IMG/VR virus record: IMGVR_UViG_3300012359_000046
Coordinates: 1 to 26,346 of that record
Strand: one strand, 5' to 3'
DNA length: 26,346 nucleotides
Origin: a virus
The number at the start of each line of letters is the position of its first letter. Within the stretch, counting starts at the first letter, position 1. The notes under the pieces were generated by a model. The model did not search any database, was not told the DNA's origin, and saw nothing but the letters and a program-made list of their open reading frames with translations. The position numbers and the translations under genes were made by a program. Below are positions 6,515-19,252 of the stretch, piece after piece.

Positions 6515-7225
6515 ATGACGAAGCGGCTGGCCAGTACGGCCCCGGGGGACCAGGCCACCCCCGGGGCCAACCCGCTGGAAGCCTGGTTCCGCGCGAATCA
6601 GGGCCGGGCGGTCAACAAGTGGCCCCACTACTTCCCGGTCTATGACAGGCACCTGGCCCGGTACCGCGGTGGCGATGTGACCGTGGCGGAGTTCGGCGTG
6701 TGGCATGGCGGGTCGCTGCAGATGTGGCGGGACTACTTCGGCCCCCGCTCCAGGGTGATCGGGGTCGACATCGACCCCCGCTGCACGGCGGCCGCGGGTG
6801 AGGGCATCACGGTGGTCACCGGCGACCAGGAGGACCGGGAGTTCCTCGCCGGCCTGGCCGCCCGGGCCGGGCCGTTCGACGTGGTCATCGACGACGGCGG
6901 GCACAGCATGGCGCAGCAGCTCGCCACGTTCGAGGTGATGTGGCCGGCGCTCGCCGAGGGCGGCACGTTCCTGGTCGAGGACGTGCACACCTCCTACTGG
7001 CCGGACTACGGCGGCGGGTACCGGCGGGCGGGCACGTTCACCGAGCACGCCAAGGACATGATCGACCGGATCAACGCCTGGCATTCCCGCGACCCGGAGT
7101 TCCAGCCGGACTACTGGACTAAGACGGTCGCCGGGATGCACGCCTACGACTCGGTCATCGTGTTCGACAAGGGCACGCACGGCGAGCCCGGACCGCCCGC
7201 CGTCACCGGCACGGCCTCATTCTGA
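6515..7225 (+). CDS. Sugar O-methyltransferase, MycE/TylE-like
   Basis: This 236-residue class I SAM-dependent methyltransferase has motif I in EFGVWHGGSLQMW (about residues 62-75), the acidic end of strand 2 in GVDIDPRC, a DD pair in VVIDDGGHS (metal and sugar binding in relatives) and EDVHTSYWP. This combination is what I recall for the mycinamicin/macrocin sugar O-methyltransferases (MycE, TylE), which methylate a deoxysugar hydroxyl in a metal-dependent way. The start ATG is only 15 bases after the capsid stop, in the same frame, and has no clear ribosome binding site, so translation may depend on coupling to the capsid gene. The next gene is a methyltransferase-glycosyltransferase fusion, so a glycan substrate is likely. 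The exact sugar is not known. Confidence 0.8.
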   Translation: MTKRLASTAPGDQATPGANPLEAWFRANQGRAVNKWPHYFPVYDRHLARYRGGDVTVAEFGVWHGGSLQMWRDYFGPRSRVIGVDIDPRCTAAAGEGITVVTGDQEDREFLAGLAARAGPFDVVIDDGGHSMAQQLATFEVMWPALAEGGTFLVEDVHTSYWPDYGGGYRRAGTFTEHAKDMIDRINAWHSRDPEFQPDYWTKTVAGMHAYDSVIVFDKGTHGEPGPPAVTGTASF

Positions 7226-7234
7226 AGGAGAGCA

Positions 7235-8836
7235 TTGGCTCCGATCACCATCACGGTCCCCGACGACATCCCGTCCGCGATCACCGGGGAGGAAGCGGCC
7301 CGCCTCGCGTCGCTCGCCTCCGGCGGGGACGTGCTGGAGCTCGGCGCCTGGTACGGGTTCTCCACGGTGGTCCTGGCCCAGGCCGCCCGCAAGGTGACAT
7401 CCGTGGACTGGCATCAGGGCGACGGGTCCCTGACCGCGATGGGCCGGGCGGACGGCGACACGTGGGCGCAGTACCAGTCGAACCTGGCCCGGTACGGCGT
7501 TGCCGCCAGGGTCGATGCGCGCCGCGGCCGGTTCGAGGTCGTGCTGCCCGCGCTGAAGGCCCAGGGCGCCCTGTTCGACGGGGTGTTCCTCGACGCGCAG
7601 CATGACGCGGCGGCGGTGCAGGCCGACCTGGACCTGGTGCTGCCGCTGATCCGGCCGGGCGGGTGGGTCGCGTTCCACGACTACGGCCGCGGCCCGGAAA
7701 CGGGCCACCACGGGTTCGGGGTGACCGAGGTCGCCGACCGGTTCGGCGTGGCCGGCGTCGCCGGGCACCTGGCCTGGGGCACCGTCCCCGGCGCGTCCCC
7801 GGCGCGCGATGCGGCGGCGGACCGGGTACTGACGGTCGTCGGGCTGCCGTTCGCGCCGGACGGCTCCGGGTACTACCGGTTCTACCTGCCGTTCAAGCAC
7901 CTGTCCGCGAACAGCCGGCACGTGTTCGGGATCCCCGCGCCCGGCAGCCGGGTCCCGCCGCCGTCCCCCGCCGAGTTGGAAGACGTCGACGTGCTGGTGA
8001 TGCAGCGGCCCGCCCTGGTGCACGGGATGCGGCAGTTCGACCGGATCGCCGGCGCCGTCGCCCGCGTGTACGAGACCGACGATGACATCACCGTGATGGA
8101 GCCGAGCAACGCGGGGCACTTCGCGTGCGACCCGCGGGCCGCGGAATCGGTGCGGTATTGCCTGCGCCGCGCCGAGATGGTCACCGTGTCCACGCCGTAC
8201 CTGGCGGAACTGTACGCCCCGTTCAACAGCAACATCCGGATCCTGCCGAACTTCGTGAAGGCTGAGCTGCTCGACATGCCCCGCAAGCGGCGGGACCGGG
8301 TGACGATCGGCTACCAGGGCGGCACGTCGCACCTGGTCGACCTGTGCATGGCGCAGCCCGTGCTGCGGCAGGTCCTGGACGCCAACCCGGACGTTGACTT
8401 CCACTGGATCGGGGCGGATTTCTCGCCGCTGCTGTACGGCTACTGGCCGCTGCGCCGCGGGAACGCCAGGTTCACCCCGTGGTTCGATGACGTGGGCGAC
8501 TACTACCGGGCCGTGGACTTCGACATCGCCATCGCCCCGCTGGCCGACGTGCCGTTCAACCGGGCCAAGTCTCACCTGAAGGCCCTGGAGTCCGCGGCCC
8601 GGGGCATCCCCATCGTGGCCACCGACATGGAGCCGTACCGGGACTTCGTCAAGGACGGGGTGACCGGGTACCTGGTCCGCACCGAGGAGGAGTGGGCCAA
8701 GCGGCTCACCGACCTGATCCACGACGAGGCGGCCCGCGACGAGCTGGGCCGCAACGCCCGCGAGCTGGCGAAGGCCCACACCATGCAAGGGAACTGGCGG
8801 ATGTATCAGGACGCGTACGAGGAGGCGGCCCGATGA
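7235..8836 (+). CDS. Bifunctional methyltransferase-glycosyltransferase fusion
   Basis: The TTG start at 7235 is supported by GAAGGAGAG just before it. Residues 1 to about 210 form a Methyltransf_24-like domain: DVLELGAWYGFS (33-43), SVDWH (56-60), GVFLDAQHD, and a PGGWVAFHDYG strand. Residues about 215-533 form a GT-B glycosyltransferase resembling GT4: an N-terminal half with VLVMQRPA and YETDDD, then ILPNFV, IGYQGGTSH, and the donor-binding helix around Lys445-Glu452 (KSHLKALESAARGIPIV), with DGVTGYLV after it. One chain could thus transfer and methylate a sugar. It follows another sugar methyltransferase by 9 bases and overlaps the next small gene by 4. The fusion is read from one uninterrupted frame. 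Acceptor and donor are not identifiable. Confidence 0.85.
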   Translation: MAPITITVPDDIPSAITGEEAARLASLASGGDVLELGAWYGFSTVVLAQAARKVTSVDWHQGDGSLTAMGRADGDTWAQYQSNLARYGVAARVDARRGRFEVVLPALKAQGALFDGVFLDAQHDAAAVQADLDLVLPLIRPGGWVAFHDYGRGPETGHHGFGVTEVADRFGVAGVAGHLAWGTVPGASPARDAAADRVLTVVGLPFAPDGSGYYRFYLPFKHLSANSRHVFGIPAPGSRVPPPSPAELEDVDVLVMQRPALVHGMRQFDRIAGAVARVYETDDDITVMEPSNAGHFACDPRAAESVRYCLRRAEMVTVSTPYLAELYAPFNSNIRILPNFVKAELLDMPRKRRDRVTIGYQGGTSHLVDLCMAQPVLRQVLDANPDVDFHWIGADFSPLLYGYWPLRRGNARFTPWFDDVGDYYRAVDFDIAIAPLADVPFNRAKSHLKALESAARGIPIVATDMEPYRDFVKDGVTGYLVRTEEEWAKRLTDLIHDEAARDELGRNARELAKAHTMQGNWRMYQDAYEEAAR

Positions 8837-12518: not shown

Positions 12519-13405
12519 GCCGCTACCCGCTCGGGCAGCCCGTGCGCCAGTCCACCACCGTCCGGCAGCTCAATGTGGACGGCACCACGAGCCTGGTCAA
12601 CGCCACCACGCTCACCCTGGTCGTGAAGCTGGCGCAGGCTGACGGCACGCAGACGGTCACGGGCACCTACGCCAGCCCCGTCAATGACGGTACCGGCCTC
12701 TACCATCAGGACGTCCCGGCCGCCGACCTCGCTGCGGTAGGCCACTACCAGTACGCGTGGACCAGTACCGGCACCGGCGCGGGCGTCTCCTTCGGCGACT
12801 TCGACGTGTTCGACCCCTTCGAGACCGCCGTCCTGCCGCTGCAGGACGCCAAGGACGCGCTCAACATCCCGCAGGCCAGCACCGGCAGCGATACAGAGAT
12901 ACAAAGCTACATCGCCACCATCGAGAGCAACCTGGAGCGGGCCACCGGCGGGCCCATCGTCAACAGGACGGTCACCGAGCGGTCCGAGATCATGGGCTGG
13001 ACCGTCATCCCCGTCCGGCAGAGACCCCTGGTCAGCGTCGTATCCATCGCGTCAGCGTCCGGCGGGACGATCAGCACCGCCGACCTCGACCTCGACGTCA
13101 ACGCCGGGCTCATCCGCCGCAAGCTCGGCCTGCCGTTCTACGGGCCGCTCTGGGGGCTGCCCGTCTGCTACCCCACCTACGTCGCCGGGTGGGGCGTGAG
13201 CGTTCCGGCCGCGTTCAACAGCTTCGCCCGGGTCGTGCTGGCCCACCTGTGGGAATCCCAGCGGGCCGGCACCGCCGCCCTCCCCATGGGCGGCGGGGAG
13301 ATGACACTCATCCCGGGATTCGGGTTCATGGTCCCGAATGTGGCCGCCGAGATGCTCAACGGGTCAATGAACGGCATCCCGTTCCTGGCCGAAGCTTTTA
13401 TCTAG
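12515..13405 (+). CDS. Head-tail connector, gp6-like, with N-terminal beta domain
   Basis: This 296-residue protein has a TTG start at 12515 inside the fibre stop, with AGGAGG 6 bases upstream. Residues 1 to about 105 form an Ig-like beta domain (LVVKLAQADGTQTV, GLYHQDVPAADLAAVGHYQYAWT, FDVFDP). From about 110 on it is a gp6/gp15-type connector: LQDAKDALNIP, SDTEIQSYIATIESNLERATGGPI, a central RPLVSVVSI, YVAGWG, and the helical end VLAHLWESQ. Connectors bind below the portal and begin the neck. The fused beta domain at the front is less usual and could be exposed on the neck. The 3' end overlaps the minus-strand HNH gene by 8 bases. Confidence 0.8.
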   Translation: MSRYPLGQPVRQSTTVRQLNVDGTTSLVNATTLTLVVKLAQADGTQTVTGTYASPVNDGTGLYHQDVPAADLAAVGHYQYAWTSTGTGAGVSFGDFDVFDPFETAVLPLQDAKDALNIPQASTGSDTEIQSYIATIESNLERATGGPIVNRTVTERSEIMGWTVIPVRQRPLVSVVSIASASGGTISTADLDLDVNAGLIRRKLGLPFYGPLWGLPVCYPTYVAGWGVSVPAAFNSFARVVLAHLWESQRAGTAALPMGGGEMTLIPGFGFMVPNVAAEMLNGSMNGIPFLAEAFI

Positions 13406-13973
13406 CAGATTCCTGCCTGAGCAACTGAGCCTGCCGCGAGCAGACACGACCGCAGAAACGCTGCCGGGAATCTCCGGGCTTGTACGGCTGGCCGCAATGT
13501 TCGCACAGGCGCTCGGAGAGCGACCGTCTACCACGGGCGGCCTTTACCCGGCTGCAGATACGGCAGTACCTGACCTTGTACTTCCCGTGATAGGTATATC
13601 CGCTGTTCTCGGGCGTGTACTCATGGTCCTGCGGGCAGTGCGTGATAGCCGCGTGCTGGCGGCGGATGTTCTCCTGCTGGGTGACGGGTTCCAGGTGGGC
13701 CGGATTCACGCATGATGCGACGCGGCACAGGTGGTCTAGCTGCAGCCCCTCGGGGATCGGCCCGACGAACAGGATGTAGGCGACGCGGTGGGCGGCAAGC
13801 GGCCGTCCCTCGTAGTACATCCACGGGTAGCGGCCATCCCGGCAGTAGCCCAGCCACAGCCAGCAGGGGCCGAGTTCAGGGCGATGCTCCGGCACCGGGC
13901 CGTTCTTGTTGACCTTTGGCCAGAAACGCTCGGCTGGCGGACGGGACGGCCTATATCGATACTGTTTAGACAT
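13398..13973 (-). CDS. HNH homing-type endonuclease
   Basis: This 191-residue protein is encoded against the operon direction. The HNH_3-type core is clear: AHRVAYILFVGPIPEG (61-76), LDHLCRVASCVNPAHLEPVT (79-98) with the catalytic Asp80-His81, Asn90 and His93. Two Cys-rich patches follow: Cys113 to Cys140 (C..DH...C..C) and Cys157-Cys160 with Cys174-Cys178, probable zinc sites. Such free-standing HNH genes act as selfish elements in phages. The ATG lies 28 bases from the start of the tail terminator on the other strand, so their 5' regions face each other. It was probably inserted between connector and terminator. Confidence 0.88.
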   Translation of the reverse strand: MSKQYRYRPSRPPAERFWPKVNKNGPVPEHRPELGPCWLWLGYCRDGRYPWMYYEGRPLAAHRVAYILFVGPIPEGLQLDHLCRVASCVNPAHLEPVTQQENIRRQHAAITHCPQDHEYTPENSGYTYHGKYKVRYCRICSRVKAARGRRSLSERLCEHCGQPYKPGDSRQRFCGRVCSRQAQLLRQESAR

Positions 13974-15030: not shown

Positions 15031-15630
15031 ATGCACCCGTCGGCGTACGCGTGGGCCAGCACGGCGCTGACCGCGGCCGAGGTGAAAGGCGCCCACGTCA
15101 TCGAGGCGGGCGCCTGCGACGTCAACGGCTCCGTCCGGCCCGCCGTCGAGGCGCTCGGCCCCGCGTCCTACACCGGCACCGACATGCAGGCCGGACCCGG
15201 CGTCGACGTCGTGTGGGACGCCGCCGACCTGTCCGGGCTCCCCGGCAGCGGCTATGGCGGGAAGGGTGGCGGGTTCGGCGCGTTCGGGATCGTCATCAGC
15301 ACCGAGATGCTCGAGCACGCGGAAGACTGGCAGGCGGCGATGACGGGGATGATCCGCGCGCTGACCCCCGGCGGGCTCCTCGTCCTGACCACCCGCTCCG
15401 AGGGATTCCCCTACCACGGCTACCCGGGGGACCACTGGCGGTTCAGCGTTGAGGCGATGGGCGAGATCATGGCCGCCGCCGCGATGGACGTCCTGGACCT
15501 GCGTGCCGACCACGACCCGGCGTCGCCCGGGGTGTTCGTCAAGGCCCGCAAGCCGGAGGGCTGGACGCAGCCACGCGGCATGCGGAAGGCGTGGGCGGCC
15601 ATCGCCGGAGTCACGGCGATGACCGGGTGA
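15031..15630 (+). CDS. SAM-dependent methyltransferase (Methyltransf_11 type)
   Basis: This 199-residue protein has ATG 15031 after AGGAGA (15022-15027). Motif I is VIEAGACDVNGSVRP (23-37), followed by YTGTDMQAGPGVDVV (strand 2 acid Asp51), IVISTEMLEHAEDW (motif IV and the usual EMLEH) and LTPGGLLVLTTRS. The fold is typical for small-molecule and sugar methyltransferases, and I recall similar DVNGSVR proteins beside glycosyltransferases. It lies between two minus-strand islands and upstream of the CgeB-like glycosyltransferase, so I infer a role in the same glycan pathway. Modification of DNA is unlikely because no NPPY or PC motif is present. Confidence 0.8.
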   Translation: MHPSAYAWASTALTAAEVKGAHVIEAGACDVNGSVRPAVEALGPASYTGTDMQAGPGVDVVWDAADLSGLPGSGYGGKGGGFGAFGIVISTEMLEHAEDWQAAMTGMIRALTPGGLLVLTTRSEGFPYHGYPGDHWRFSVEAMGEIMAAAAMDVLDLRADHDPASPGVFVKARKPEGWTQPRGMRKAWAAIAGVTAMTG

Positions 15631-16495: not shown

Positions 16496-17548
16496 CGCTG
16501 GCTGCTCATCCATCCAGGACCTTCGTGGTCCGTGGCTGACGTTTTCAACGGCTGGTCCGAGGCCCTCACCGGACTCGGCGAGCAGGTCGAGGAATACCCG
16601 CTCGACGCGGCGCTGCGGTTCTTCAACAACGCGCTCGCCGAAACCGGGGAGGTCCGGCCGTGCGGCTGCCGTGAGGTGCGGAAGTACCTGGACCGCGACC
16701 AGGCCGCCCGGCTCGCCGTCGACCCGATCCTCGCCGCCGCGCACCGGTTCGGGCCCGACGTGATCCTGTGCACCTCCGCGTTCTTCATGCAGCCGTGGCT
16801 CCTGGAGATCCTCCGCGCCCGGCGCCACAAGATCGTCTTGCTGACGACGGAAAGTCCTTACCAGGACGACTACCAGCTGAAAGTCGCGGAGTACGCGGAC
16901 CTGACCCTGCTTAACGACCCGGTCAACATCGGCCTGTACCGGGACATCGGCCCCGCCGAGTACATGCCGCAGGCGTACCGGGAGTCGGTCCACTACCCGC
17001 CGCCGCCCGGCACCGTCCCGGAATACGACCTCGCGTTCGTCGGCACCGGGTTCCCGTCCCGCGTCAGGTTCTTCTCGGCGATGGACCTGGCCGGGCTGAA
17101 CGTCCGCCTGTCCGGCCTGTGGATGGACTTGGCGGAGGACTCGCCGCTGCGGGAGTGGACCGCCACTGAAGCCGACGACTGCGTCGGCAACCACGAGGTC
17201 GCCGCTATCTACCGGCGCAGCAGGACCGGCATCAACGTCTACCGGACCGAATCCGAGGCCGGGCACGCGGGCGAGGGATGGGCCTGCGGGCCCCGCGAGA
17301 TCGAGATGGCCGCGTCCGGACTGTGGTTCGCCCGCGACCCCCGCCCGGAATCGGACGAGCTGTTCCCGATGCTCCCGTCGTTCACCAGCCCGGAAGAAGC
17401 CGGGGACCTCATCCGCTGGGCCCTCGCCCACCCGGAAGAACGCGAGCAGGCGGCGCTGAAGGCCCGCGCCGCGATCGCGGACCGCACGTTCACCGAGCAC
17501 GCCAAGCAGCTGCTCCGGCTGCTCAGCCGGCAGCCCGTCACGATGTAG
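16493..17548 (+). CDS. Glycosyltransferase, CgeB-like GT-B family
   Basis: This is 351 residues if translation starts at ATT 16493 (338 from GTG 16532). The N-terminal RWLLIHPGPSWSVADVFNGW is the first strand and helix of the GT-B fold, as in phage glycosyltransferases that begin with HPGP.FSVADV. Further blocks are LLTTESPYQDD, LLNDPVNI, a central DLAFVGTGFPSRVRFF, GINVYR, and the donor-site CGPREIEMAASGLWFARD of the Glyco_trans_1_2 type. The C-terminal helix is FTEHAKQLLRLL. It would transfer a sugar from a nucleotide donor, and the tail tube gene follows after 12 bases. Its place next to a methyltransferase and the tail gene suggests virion glycosylation. Donor and acceptor are unknown. 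Confidence 0.82.
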   Translation: MRWLLIHPGPSWSVADVFNGWSEALTGLGEQVEEYPLDAALRFFNNALAETGEVRPCGCREVRKYLDRDQAARLAVDPILAAAHRFGPDVILCTSAFFMQPWLLEILRARRHKIVLLTTESPYQDDYQLKVAEYADLTLLNDPVNIGLYRDIGPAEYMPQAYRESVHYPPPPGTVPEYDLAFVGTGFPSRVRFFSAMDLAGLNVRLSGLWMDLAEDSPLREWTATEADDCVGNHEVAAIYRRSRTGINVYRTESEAGHAGEGWACGPREIEMAASGLWFARDPRPESDELFPMLPSFTSPEEAGDLIRWALAHPEEREQAALKARAAIADRTFTEHAKQLLRLLSRQPVTM

Positions 17549-17560
17549 GGAGAAACGCCA

Positions 17561-17989
17561 ATGCCATCCAGCAGGCGCCACGGCCGGAACGCGCAAATCT
17601 ACCTCGGCCTGACCACCGGCGCCGCCGCGGTGCCGCTGCCATTCCAGGCGGCCTGGTCAATCAACAAGGCCAGCGACAGAGATGAGGTCACGGCCTTCGG
17701 GGACGCCAACAAGGTGTACGTCGGCGGGCTCCCGGACGCCTCCGGGGACTTCTCCGGGTTCCTCGACGCGGGCACCTCCCAGACCTACGTCGCCGCCTCA
17801 GACGGACTGCCGCGCAACATGTATCTCTACTGGGATGCCGTCAACGATCCTTCGTCCTACTTCTACGGAACTGTGTTGTGCGATTTCAGCGCTGATGGCG
17901 CGGTCTCCGGCCCCGTGAACTTCAAGGCGACCTGGGCAGCAGCCGGTCCCGTCGTCCGCTACACGCAGTGGGGCGGCATCGGCACCTGA
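17561..17989 (+). CDS. Major tail (tube) protein
   Basis: This 142-residue protein has ATG 17561 after GGGAGA (17549-17554). It shows the tail tube pattern: a basic N-terminus, then AAWSINKASDRDEVTAFGD, YVGGLPDASGDFSGFLD (inner sheet and loop), NMYLYWD, GTVLCDFSADGAVSGPVNFKATW and a short end. These subunits stack as rings around the tape measure. The last 31 bases are shared with the 3' end of a minus-strand HNH gene. The short length is near the lower limit for siphovirus tube proteins. Confidence 0.8.
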   Translation: MPSSRRHGRNAQIYLGLTTGAAAVPLPFQAAWSINKASDRDEVTAFGDANKVYVGGLPDASGDFSGFLDAGTSQTYVAASDGLPRNMYLYWDAVNDPSSYFYGTVLCDFSADGAVSGPVNFKATWAAAGPVVRYTQWGGIGT

Positions 17990-18681
17990 GCCAGTTCCCG
18001 GTCCAGTTCAGCCGCTACGGCCGGGCTGTGCGCAGCTCCATGCGCCACCCGGGCCGGATCCCAGTGGATCAGCAGCTTGCCGCCCTTGCTCTGGTTGCAG
18101 GGCCGGCATGCGGGCGCGAGGTTGTACCTGGCCTCGTGGCCGCCGAGCGCGAGCGGCCGGATGTGGTCGACGTGCGTCGGAATGGCACCGCAGTAGATGC
18201 ACGGCCCTGATGCGAGCACTTCGATATAAACCGACCGTGGCACCGGACCCGCTACTTCGGCAGCTAGCTTCCGGGCGCGGCGGGCGTTGCCGTGCGTCCG
18301 CGCCCGGCCTGAGCAGGAGTCGCATTCCAGGGTCAGCCTGCGGTGAGTCTTTCCGCAGGCGGTGCACGCCCGGTCCGATTTCCGGCATTCCTGGCACTGG
18401 CTATTGGAGGCGCGGAACACGTGCTCGCAGGTGATGCAGGGATGCTCCGGGTACCGGCACGCTGAGCACTTGCGGTAGAGCCCGCGGAAGGTCGCGCCGC
18501 AGATCACGCATTCGCGGTCTGTCAGGCGGCAAGTCGGGCATAGGTATTGGGTGCCGCGATACACGCGGTCGCATGCGGTGCACTTCCGTCTCCCGATGGG
18601 GCGGCAACCGGGGCACTTACGGTACCGGCCAGTAAAGACAGTGCCGCATTGGACGCACACGCGGTCTGTACCCTGGGTCAT
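17959..18681 (-). CDS. HNH endonuclease with five tandem zinc ribbons
   Basis: This 240-residue minus-strand protein has ATG 18681 (the longer frame upstream is antisense to another gene). Five CxxC...CxxC ribbons repeat with a period of 24-25 residues: Cys9/12/23/26, 34/37/48/51, 58/61/72/75, 82/85/96/99 and 106/109/120/123. A basic linker follows (126-140). The HNH core is CIYCG (161-165), THVDHIRPLALGGH (169-182), YNLAPACRPCNQSKGGK (186-202), with Asp172-His173 and Cys161/164/192/195 as the structural zinc site. The ribbons probably read a DNA target. It overlaps the tail tube gene by 31 bases. It looks like an inserted homing endonuclease. Confidence 0.85.
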   Translation of the reverse strand: MTQGTDRVCVQCGTVFTGRYRKCPGCRPIGRRKCTACDRVYRGTQYLCPTCRLTDRECVICGATFRGLYRKCSACRYPEHPCITCEHVFRASNSQCQECRKSDRACTACGKTHRRLTLECDSCSGRARTHGNARRARKLAAEVAGPVPRSVYIEVLASGPCIYCGAIPTHVDHIRPLALGGHEARYNLAPACRPCNQSKGGKLLIHWDPARVAHGAAHSPAVAAELDRELAQVPMPPHCV

Positions 18682-18784
18682 ACCGGCCTGCTCTCTCAGG
18701 TCGTGCCCCGGGGTGCCTGAACCGCACCGCCGGGGCCTTTGCATCCGATCATATCCGCAGGTAGCGACATTCCAGGGAGGTGCT

Positions 18785-19252
18785 ATGGCGGGCCTGGCTG
18801 ACGCGGCGGCGGAACTGGAGGCTCTCGCGTTCCGGCTGCGCCGCGCCGGGGACGGCGAGCTCGTCCGGGAGGTCACCCGGGCGATGCGTGACGCCGTGAC
18901 CCCGGTGCAGGGCGAGATCCGGGCCGGGCTCAAGCCGGAACTACCGGACCGGTACGCGGCGGCCCTCGACGAGGACCTGCGGCTGGGCGTCAACGTCCGC
19001 ACGAACGAGCGGGACCCGGGCGTGTCCGTCACCGGGCAGGCCCGTAGCAAGGCCCGGAAGCTCCGCAACCTCGACGAGGGGCGGCTCACCCATCCCGTGT
19101 TCGGCAACCGCGAGGTCTGGCGCACGCAGGAGGAGCCGTCGGTGCAGCCTGGCTGGTTCACCGGCCCCGCCGAGGCGGCCGGGCCGCGGGTCCGCGCGGG
19201 AATCGAACGGGCGCTGGCGGACGTCGCCGATAAAGCAGTCAAGGGAGCCTGA
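18785..19252 (+). CDS. HK97 gp10-like neck or tail-completion protein
   Basis: This 155-residue protein has ATG 18785 after AGGGAGG. It starts with helices (DAAAELEALAFRLRRAGD, then LVREVTRAMRDAVTPVQGEI), has a basic middle (QARSKARKLRNLDEGRL), and the block HPVFGNREVWRTQ...PGWF, which is the clearest mark of the gp10-like family in actinophages. Gp10-like proteins join neck and tail. Here the gene lies after the tail tube instead of before the terminator, an unusual order. The stop overlaps the next ATG by one base (TGATG). Confidence 0.7.
   Translation: MAGLADAAAELEALAFRLRRAGDGELVREVTRAMRDAVTPVQGEIRAGLKPELPDRYAAALDEDLRLGVNVRTNERDPGVSVTGQARSKARKLRNLDEGRLTHPVFGNREVWRTQEEPSVQPGWFTGPAEAAGPRVRAGIERALADVADKAVKGA

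What the first reader, a model, noticed from the sequence alone, without database searches (positions are those of the whole stretch)
17959..18681. HNH nuclease with an array of five zinc ribbons
Four-Cys ribbons repeat every 24-25 residues ahead of a canonical HNH core. Common HNH homing enzymes have one or two such fingers. Five in a row could read a long DNA site, like a natural modular DNA-binding array, or bind structured RNA.
Basis: partly seen in the sequence, partly recalled or inferred. Interest (0 to 1): 0.6.

Follow-up and report, generated by a model that had tools for sequence, protein, structure and literature searches.

The report
Phage nuclease with expandable zinc-ribbon array
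A phage carries a mobile DNA-cutting gene whose recognition end is a string of near-identical zinc-binding modules, five here and up to fourteen in relatives, that are added, lost and swapped between two kinds of nuclease, which makes it a candidate natural 'beads on a string' nucleic-acid reader.

Summary
Window 17959-18681 (minus strand) encodes 240 aa with five CxxC-x10-CxxC ribbons every 24-25 residues, then an intact HNH core. It interrupts the overlapping stop/start of a major-tail-protein gene and the next gene; at least seven relatives have that junction empty. It is a free-standing, homing-type insertion. Presence is scattered on the tail-protein tree (8 changes, the same as shuffled labels).

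The array is a family, not an oddity. Relatives carry 6, 6, 8, 8, 11, 14 and 14 ribbons before the same HNH core. At the same tail site other relatives join two to four ribbons to an Endonuclease VII core, and the first three ribbons of one EndoVII protein match those of the 8-ribbon HNH protein. The window differs from its closest distinct homologue by one in-frame module. Module framework residues are almost invariant; ten other positions diverge between modules at near-neutral rates, yet stay constrained between orthologues. That fits per-module recognition, but DNA binding is inferred and no recognition code was shown.

Best reading: a homing-type nuclease with a modular, evolvable recognition array; a new variant of a known kind. 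In passing: its 5' leader is a covarying two-hairpin RNA, absent from Rfam, found in most Streptomyces genomes sampled.

The parts
17959..18681 (-). Ribbon-array HNH nuclease gene, 240 aa plus stop
   Evidence: translation; Pfam HNH; homologues
18304..18657 (-). Five zinc ribbons (residues 9-26, 34-51, 58-75, 82-99, 106-123) with linkers
   Evidence: AlphaFold of four ribbons pLDDT 91; shuffle test
18076..18201 (-). HNH core, residues 161-202 (C161, C164, D172-H173, N187, C192, C195, N196 conserved in all relatives aligned)
   Evidence: PDB profile match 4h9d E 1.9e-10
18679..18737 (-). Two-hairpin leader RNA ending in the ATG; hairpin 1 at 18736-18705, hairpin 2 at 18703-18684
   Evidence: covariance model match 38.9 bits; covariation; fold
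17990..18784 (.). Inserted element: sits between TGA of the tail gene and ATG of the next gene, which overlap (TGATG) in empty relatives
17561..17989 (+). Major tail protein gene (host gene of the insertion site; its 3' end supplies the nuclease stop codon)
   Evidence: PHROG major tail protein E 2.1e-7
18785..19252 (+). Next phage gene, downstream side of the insertion site
   Evidence: PHROG 11991 E 2e-19; conserved in relatives

Best explanation
A free-standing homing-type mobile nuclease of actinobacterial-type phages. Shown: intact HNH core; exact insertion at the tail-protein/next-gene junction with empty and differently occupied relatives; scattered presence; an array of small zinc modules that gains, loses and recombines units and is joined to either an HNH or an Endonuclease VII core. 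Inferred: the array is the recognition domain, each basic zinc module docking on nucleic acid with conserved positions holding the fold and backbone and divergent positions giving specificity; the HNH core nicks or cuts an element-free copy of the tail region, and repair copies the element in. Changing the number of modules would retune the site as phages diverge.
For: Empty junctions TGATG in L012, L013, L014, L016, L020, L025, L026 against 795 bp in the window. Same site occupied by array-HNH (window, L003, L011), array-EndoVII (L009, L010, L033, L035, L190, L193), another HNH_3 (L008) or nothing. Label changes on the tail tree 8, shuffled mean 8.1. Ribbon number 5, 6, 6, 8, 8, 11, 14, 14. 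Window versus L003: one in-frame module lost or gained at CVQ|CG. L011 (HNH) and L033 (EndoVII) ribbons 1-3 are 75, 70, 65% identical in order, median of all inter-protein pairs 38%. Framework dN/dS 0.006 and variable 0.91 between the modules of L233, with positions defined on other proteins; variable 0.31 between orthologues. Arrays are basic, net +18 to +52.
Against: No binding or cleavage data. Arrays of very different length sit at the same site, so the array need not read that site module by module. dN/dS of 0.91 between modules also fits relaxed constraint at solvent positions. Scattered presence also fits repeated loss. No PDB fold match for the ribbons (best E 0.79), so the nucleic-acid face is unknown.
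Confidence: 0.6

Rival explanations
1. Mobile nuclease as above, but the ribbons bind DNA without sequence choice (affinity or spacing) and the site is chosen by the HNH core and linker.
For: Array length varies 2-8 at one insertion site; linker GNARRARKLAAEVAGPVP and core are well conserved between HNH-type proteins; dN/dS lower in the HNH part (0.094) than in ribbons (0.26).
Against: Divergent ribbon positions are constrained between orthologues (0.31); arrays of 11-14 modules seem costly for plain affinity.
Confidence: 0.25
2. The array binds RNA, for example its own leader, a guide or a structured transcript, to regulate or target the nuclease.
For: Cx2C-x10-Cx2C spacing equals that of RanBP2-type fingers that read single-stranded RNA (recalled, not tested); HNH core is in the superfamily of IscB/Cas9 HNH domains (NCBIfam guided_IscB E 8e-8 for L214).
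Against: The IscB and Cas9d matches are far below their cut-offs and cover little more than the HNH core; the leader occurs upstream of many genes without arrays and the long-array genes L198, L202, L214, L218, L233 have no leader match; no known RNA family found.
Confidence: 0.08
3. An anti-phage or inter-phage defence nuclease rather than a homing enzyme.
For: PADLOC models of HNH defence proteins match the core weakly.
Against: Matches cover little more than the HNH core; position at one exact junction in a tail module with empty relatives is the homing pattern.
Confidence: 0.07

Closest known systems
Free-standing HNH homing endonucleases of phages (T4 mob genes; review PMC2988022)
   Same: HNH core, placed between conserved phage genes, absent in relatives, 5' RNA hairpins near the ribosome-binding site
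   Different: Those have a distinct C-terminal region presumed to bind DNA; here an N-terminal array of zinc ribbons of constant period and variable copy number; antisense to the host genes
Actinophage HNH nucleases with several zinc fingers (Gordonia phages GAL1, GTE8, IDyn)
   Same: N-terminal fingers followed by a related HNH core (GAL1 32% over 65% of the window protein); GAL1 shares the leader
   Different: In GAL1 and GTE8 about three fingers of a different, longer CxxC..CxxxC type, no regular 24-residue period
Phage Endonuclease VII family proteins (PF02945)
   Same: Array proteins at the same site have this core; E 1e-23 to 7e-26 for the three scanned
   Different: T4 endonuclease VII has no ribbon array (from memory); here two to four ribbons plus Cx4C/CxxH fingers precede the core
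Tandem zinc-finger, TALE and PPR repeat proteins
   Same: Repeated module with fixed framework and divergent positions
   Different: Other folds; no recognition code demonstrated here; no significant PDB match for the ribbon array

Membership tests
Free-standing HNH homing endonuclease | Intact HNH catalytic core | tested here: met
   DH, N, CN positions invariant in seven relatives
Free-standing HNH homing endonuclease | Gene inserted between conserved genes, with empty relatives | tested here: met
   TGATG junction empty in at least seven relatives
Free-standing HNH homing endonuclease | Horizontal spread at the site | tested here: inconclusive
   8 label changes, no clustering; repeated loss not excluded
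Free-standing HNH homing endonuclease | Cuts or nicks the empty allele and is preferentially inherited | not testable with these tools
   needs biochemistry and mixed infection
IscB / Cas9-like RNA-guided HNH nuclease | RuvC-type domain next to the HNH domain | tested here: not met
   only the HNH region matches, 24 bits against a cut-off of 175; Pfam finds no other catalytic domain
Pfam DZR double zinc ribbon | Score above the curated cut-off | tested here: inconclusive
   window 14.4 bits, below 27.3; relatives L218 44.9 and L214 31.0 bits, above
RanBP2-type zinc finger | Trp before the first Cys and Asn in the loop (signature recalled from memory) | tested here: not met
   spacing fits, but no conserved Trp or Asn; G5, F8 and G10 are conserved instead; no RanBP2 match in the PDB searches

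The most novel reading that the evidence does not exclude
The ribbons are a previously undescribed class of natural modular nucleic-acid reader: each 24-residue module contacts a fixed number of bases through positions such as 11, 12, 16, 17 and 20, modules combine freely, and phages retarget HNH or Endonuclease VII cores by adding, deleting or swapping modules (2 to 14).
Probability: 0.25. Interest if true: 0.9.

Novelty: new variant of a known kind. Interest (0 to 1): 0.62.

Why it matters
Phage homing nucleases are usually thought of as single-piece enzymes whose specificity changes slowly. An array that changes by whole modules and is shared by two catalytic families would show how such enzymes acquire new sites. 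If the modules read bases independently, it would be a compact (24 residues per module) alternative to zinc-finger and TALE arrays. The natural series of 5, 6, 8, 11 and 14 modules makes the question directly testable. The leader found on the way is a strongly covarying RNA structure that is not in Rfam and occurs in two thirds of the Streptomyces genomes sampled.

Tried and rejected
Scan of viral contigs for bare TGY spacing was swamped by cysteine-rich low-complexity repeats; a pattern with the G, F, R, G positions worked. Foldseek of the full model (pTM 0.34) gave no significant PDB match, mostly HNH domains; Foldseek of the ribbon model (pLDDT 91) gave nothing significant. Profile search of the PDB with ribbons: only FYVE and eL37 at E 0.03, not used. 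RNA-guided nuclease (IscB) considered because of NCBIfam hits and rejected: HNH region only. Leader-binding by the array considered and disfavoured: leader and arrays occur without each other. First covariance model R1 had a register error in hairpin 2 and was replaced by R2. Literature searches found no description of such arrays, but the library holds open-licence papers only.

Full report
OBSERVATION. The minus strand of window 17959-18681 encodes a 240-residue protein. Five exact CxxC-x10-CxxC ribbons start at residues 9, 34, 58, 82 and 106. Shuffling the same residues 20,000 times gives 0.02 such motifs on average and at most 2. Residues 161-202 are an HNH core above both curated Pfam cut-offs, with the DH, N and CN positions invariant in seven relatives; the best solved relative by profile is the HNH endonuclease 4h9d (E 1.9e-10). 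The record is an IMG/VR virus contig of 26,346 bases.

SITE. The gene runs antisense between a major tail protein gene (17561-17989) and the next phage gene (18785-19252). In relatives L012, L013, L014, L016, L020, L025 and L026 these two genes overlap as TGATG with nothing between. In the window 795 bases separate TGA from ATG, and the insertion supplies the next gene with an AGGGAGG ribosome-binding site (sequence). The nuclease stop codon lies 31 bases inside the tail gene, so the element ends without a stop of its own. A set of 59 tail-protein relatives shows that the junction is a hot spot: ribbon-array HNH (window and its 100% protein match L002; L003; L011), ribbon-array Endonuclease VII (L009, L010, L033, L035, L190, L193), an unrelated HNH_3-like gene in the other orientation (L008, assigned by eye), a small unrelated ORF (L015), or nothing. 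On the tail-protein tree, array presence needs 8 changes; shuffled labels need 8.1 on average. This is what mobility predicts, although repeated loss cannot be excluded.

ARRAY FAMILY. Ribbon numbers in HNH-type proteins are: window 5; L003 6; L198 in Streptomyces amritsarensis 6; L011 8, one of them degenerate; L202 in another Streptomyces 8, most of them Cx4C or CxxH variants; L218 on a 120-kb viral contig 11; L214 on a 154-kb viral contig 14; and L233 on a Rhodococcus plasmid 14, where the gene table lists no gene. They are rare: 2 of 393 Streptomyces genomes and 1 of 396 Actinomycetota genomes, the known one. The pattern scan of viral contigs found arrays of three or more such ribbons only in front of HNH or Endonuclease VII cores.

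HOW THE ARRAY CHANGES. Window and L003 differ by one module removed or added in frame at the CVQ|CG point. L011 (HNH) and L033 (Endonuclease VII) share ribbons 1, 2 and 3 in order at 75, 70 and 65% identity, against a median of 38% and a 99th percentile of 63% for all inter-protein pairs; the ribbons were therefore exchanged between two catalytic families, or the catalytic cores were exchanged behind them. Synonymous divergence between window and L003 is 0.34 in ribbons 2-5 but 1.0 in the HNH part (Fisher p 0.0005 on site counts), consistent with recombination inside the gene.

SELECTION. Positions 1, 4, 5, 8, 10, 15, 18 and 23 of the 24-residue module (C, C, G, F, G, C, C, R) form the framework; 2, 7, 11, 12, 16, 17, 19-21 and 24 are variable. 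Both sets were defined on L214, L218 and L198 and then tested on L233: dN/dS between its modules is 0.006 for the framework and 0.91 for the variable positions (dS about 1.2-1.4). Between orthologous ribbons of window and L003 the variable positions have 0.31. Each module thus keeps its own residues in descent but differs from its neighbours. That fits a role for each module in recognition; relaxed constraint between modules is the alternative. Arrays are basic, net +18 to +52.

STRUCTURE. AlphaFold of the window protein: mean pLDDT 76, pTM 0.34, highest in ribbons 2-5 (81-90). Four ribbons alone, aligned with other arrays: pLDDT 91, pTM 0.54, each module a beta hairpin with, in three of the four, a short helix at the second CxxC. 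No significant PDB match for the ribbons by sequence or fold. Among viral predicted structures the best matches are Gordonia phage HNH proteins IDyn and GTE8.

MECHANISM. Most likely a homing-type nuclease: the array docks, HNH nicks or cuts an empty tail region, repair copies the element. Insertion, core integrity, module turnover and core swapping are shown; binding, cutting and copying are inferred from the family (T4 free-standing enzymes, PMC2988022). Whether the array reads bases one module at a time is open.

LEADER. Upstream of the ATG lies a two-hairpin leader (18679-18737). On six leaders 8 of 17 pairs change on both sides, covariation score 0.46 against at most 0.06 when slid; on 49 matches 12 of 17 and 0.42 against at most 0.06 (that alignment was fitted to the model). 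It precedes array-HNH, array-EndoVII, Gordonia GAL1 and Microbacterium R1 nucleases, and also many small accessory genes: 135 of 199 Streptomyces genomes and 26 of 296 Actinomycetota genomes have a match. Rfam has nothing there. It is therefore a general actinobacterial leader that the nuclease uses, not part of the array system. Published start-associated sequences of cluster K phages (PMC3203893) are 13-bp motifs whose associated inverted repeats were judged not to form RNA hairpins; they differ.

NOVELTY. HNH homing nucleases and multi-finger actinophage HNH proteins are known kinds. Long, regular, shuffling ribbon arrays shared with Endonuclease VII cores were not found described in the library searched; the library is incomplete.

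Noticed in passing
window 18679-18737 (-); L238-L296: Two-hairpin leader RNA ending CGAC-ATG, strongly covarying, not in Rfam, in 135 of 199 Streptomyces and 26 of 296 Actinomycetota genomes, upstream of diverse small accessory genes and phage nucleases.
   Followed up: partly
L257 (Streptomyces genome): HNH protein of 401 aa with seven fingers of a different type (Cx4C..CxxHYxR), preceded by the same leader: a second, independent finger array on an HNH core.
   Followed up: no
L233:4767-6137 (Rhodococcus sp. USK10 plasmid NZ_CP076046.1): 14-ribbon HNH gene in a stretch with no listed gene.
   Followed up: partly
window 13398-13973 (-): Second HNH gene of another type (HNH_3, E 1.6e-14), also antisense within the structural gene region.
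   Followed up: no
window 6515-8836, 15031-15630, 16532-17548: Methyltransferase- and glycosyltransferase-like genes among head and tail genes; the glycosyltransferase-like gene directly upstream of the tail gene is conserved in most relatives.
   Followed up: no
L026 ATG at 7783 (+): The leader also precedes a protein with repeated RxYxAANRxK segments, possibly another nuclease, at a different site of a relative that has the tail junction empty.
   Followed up: no
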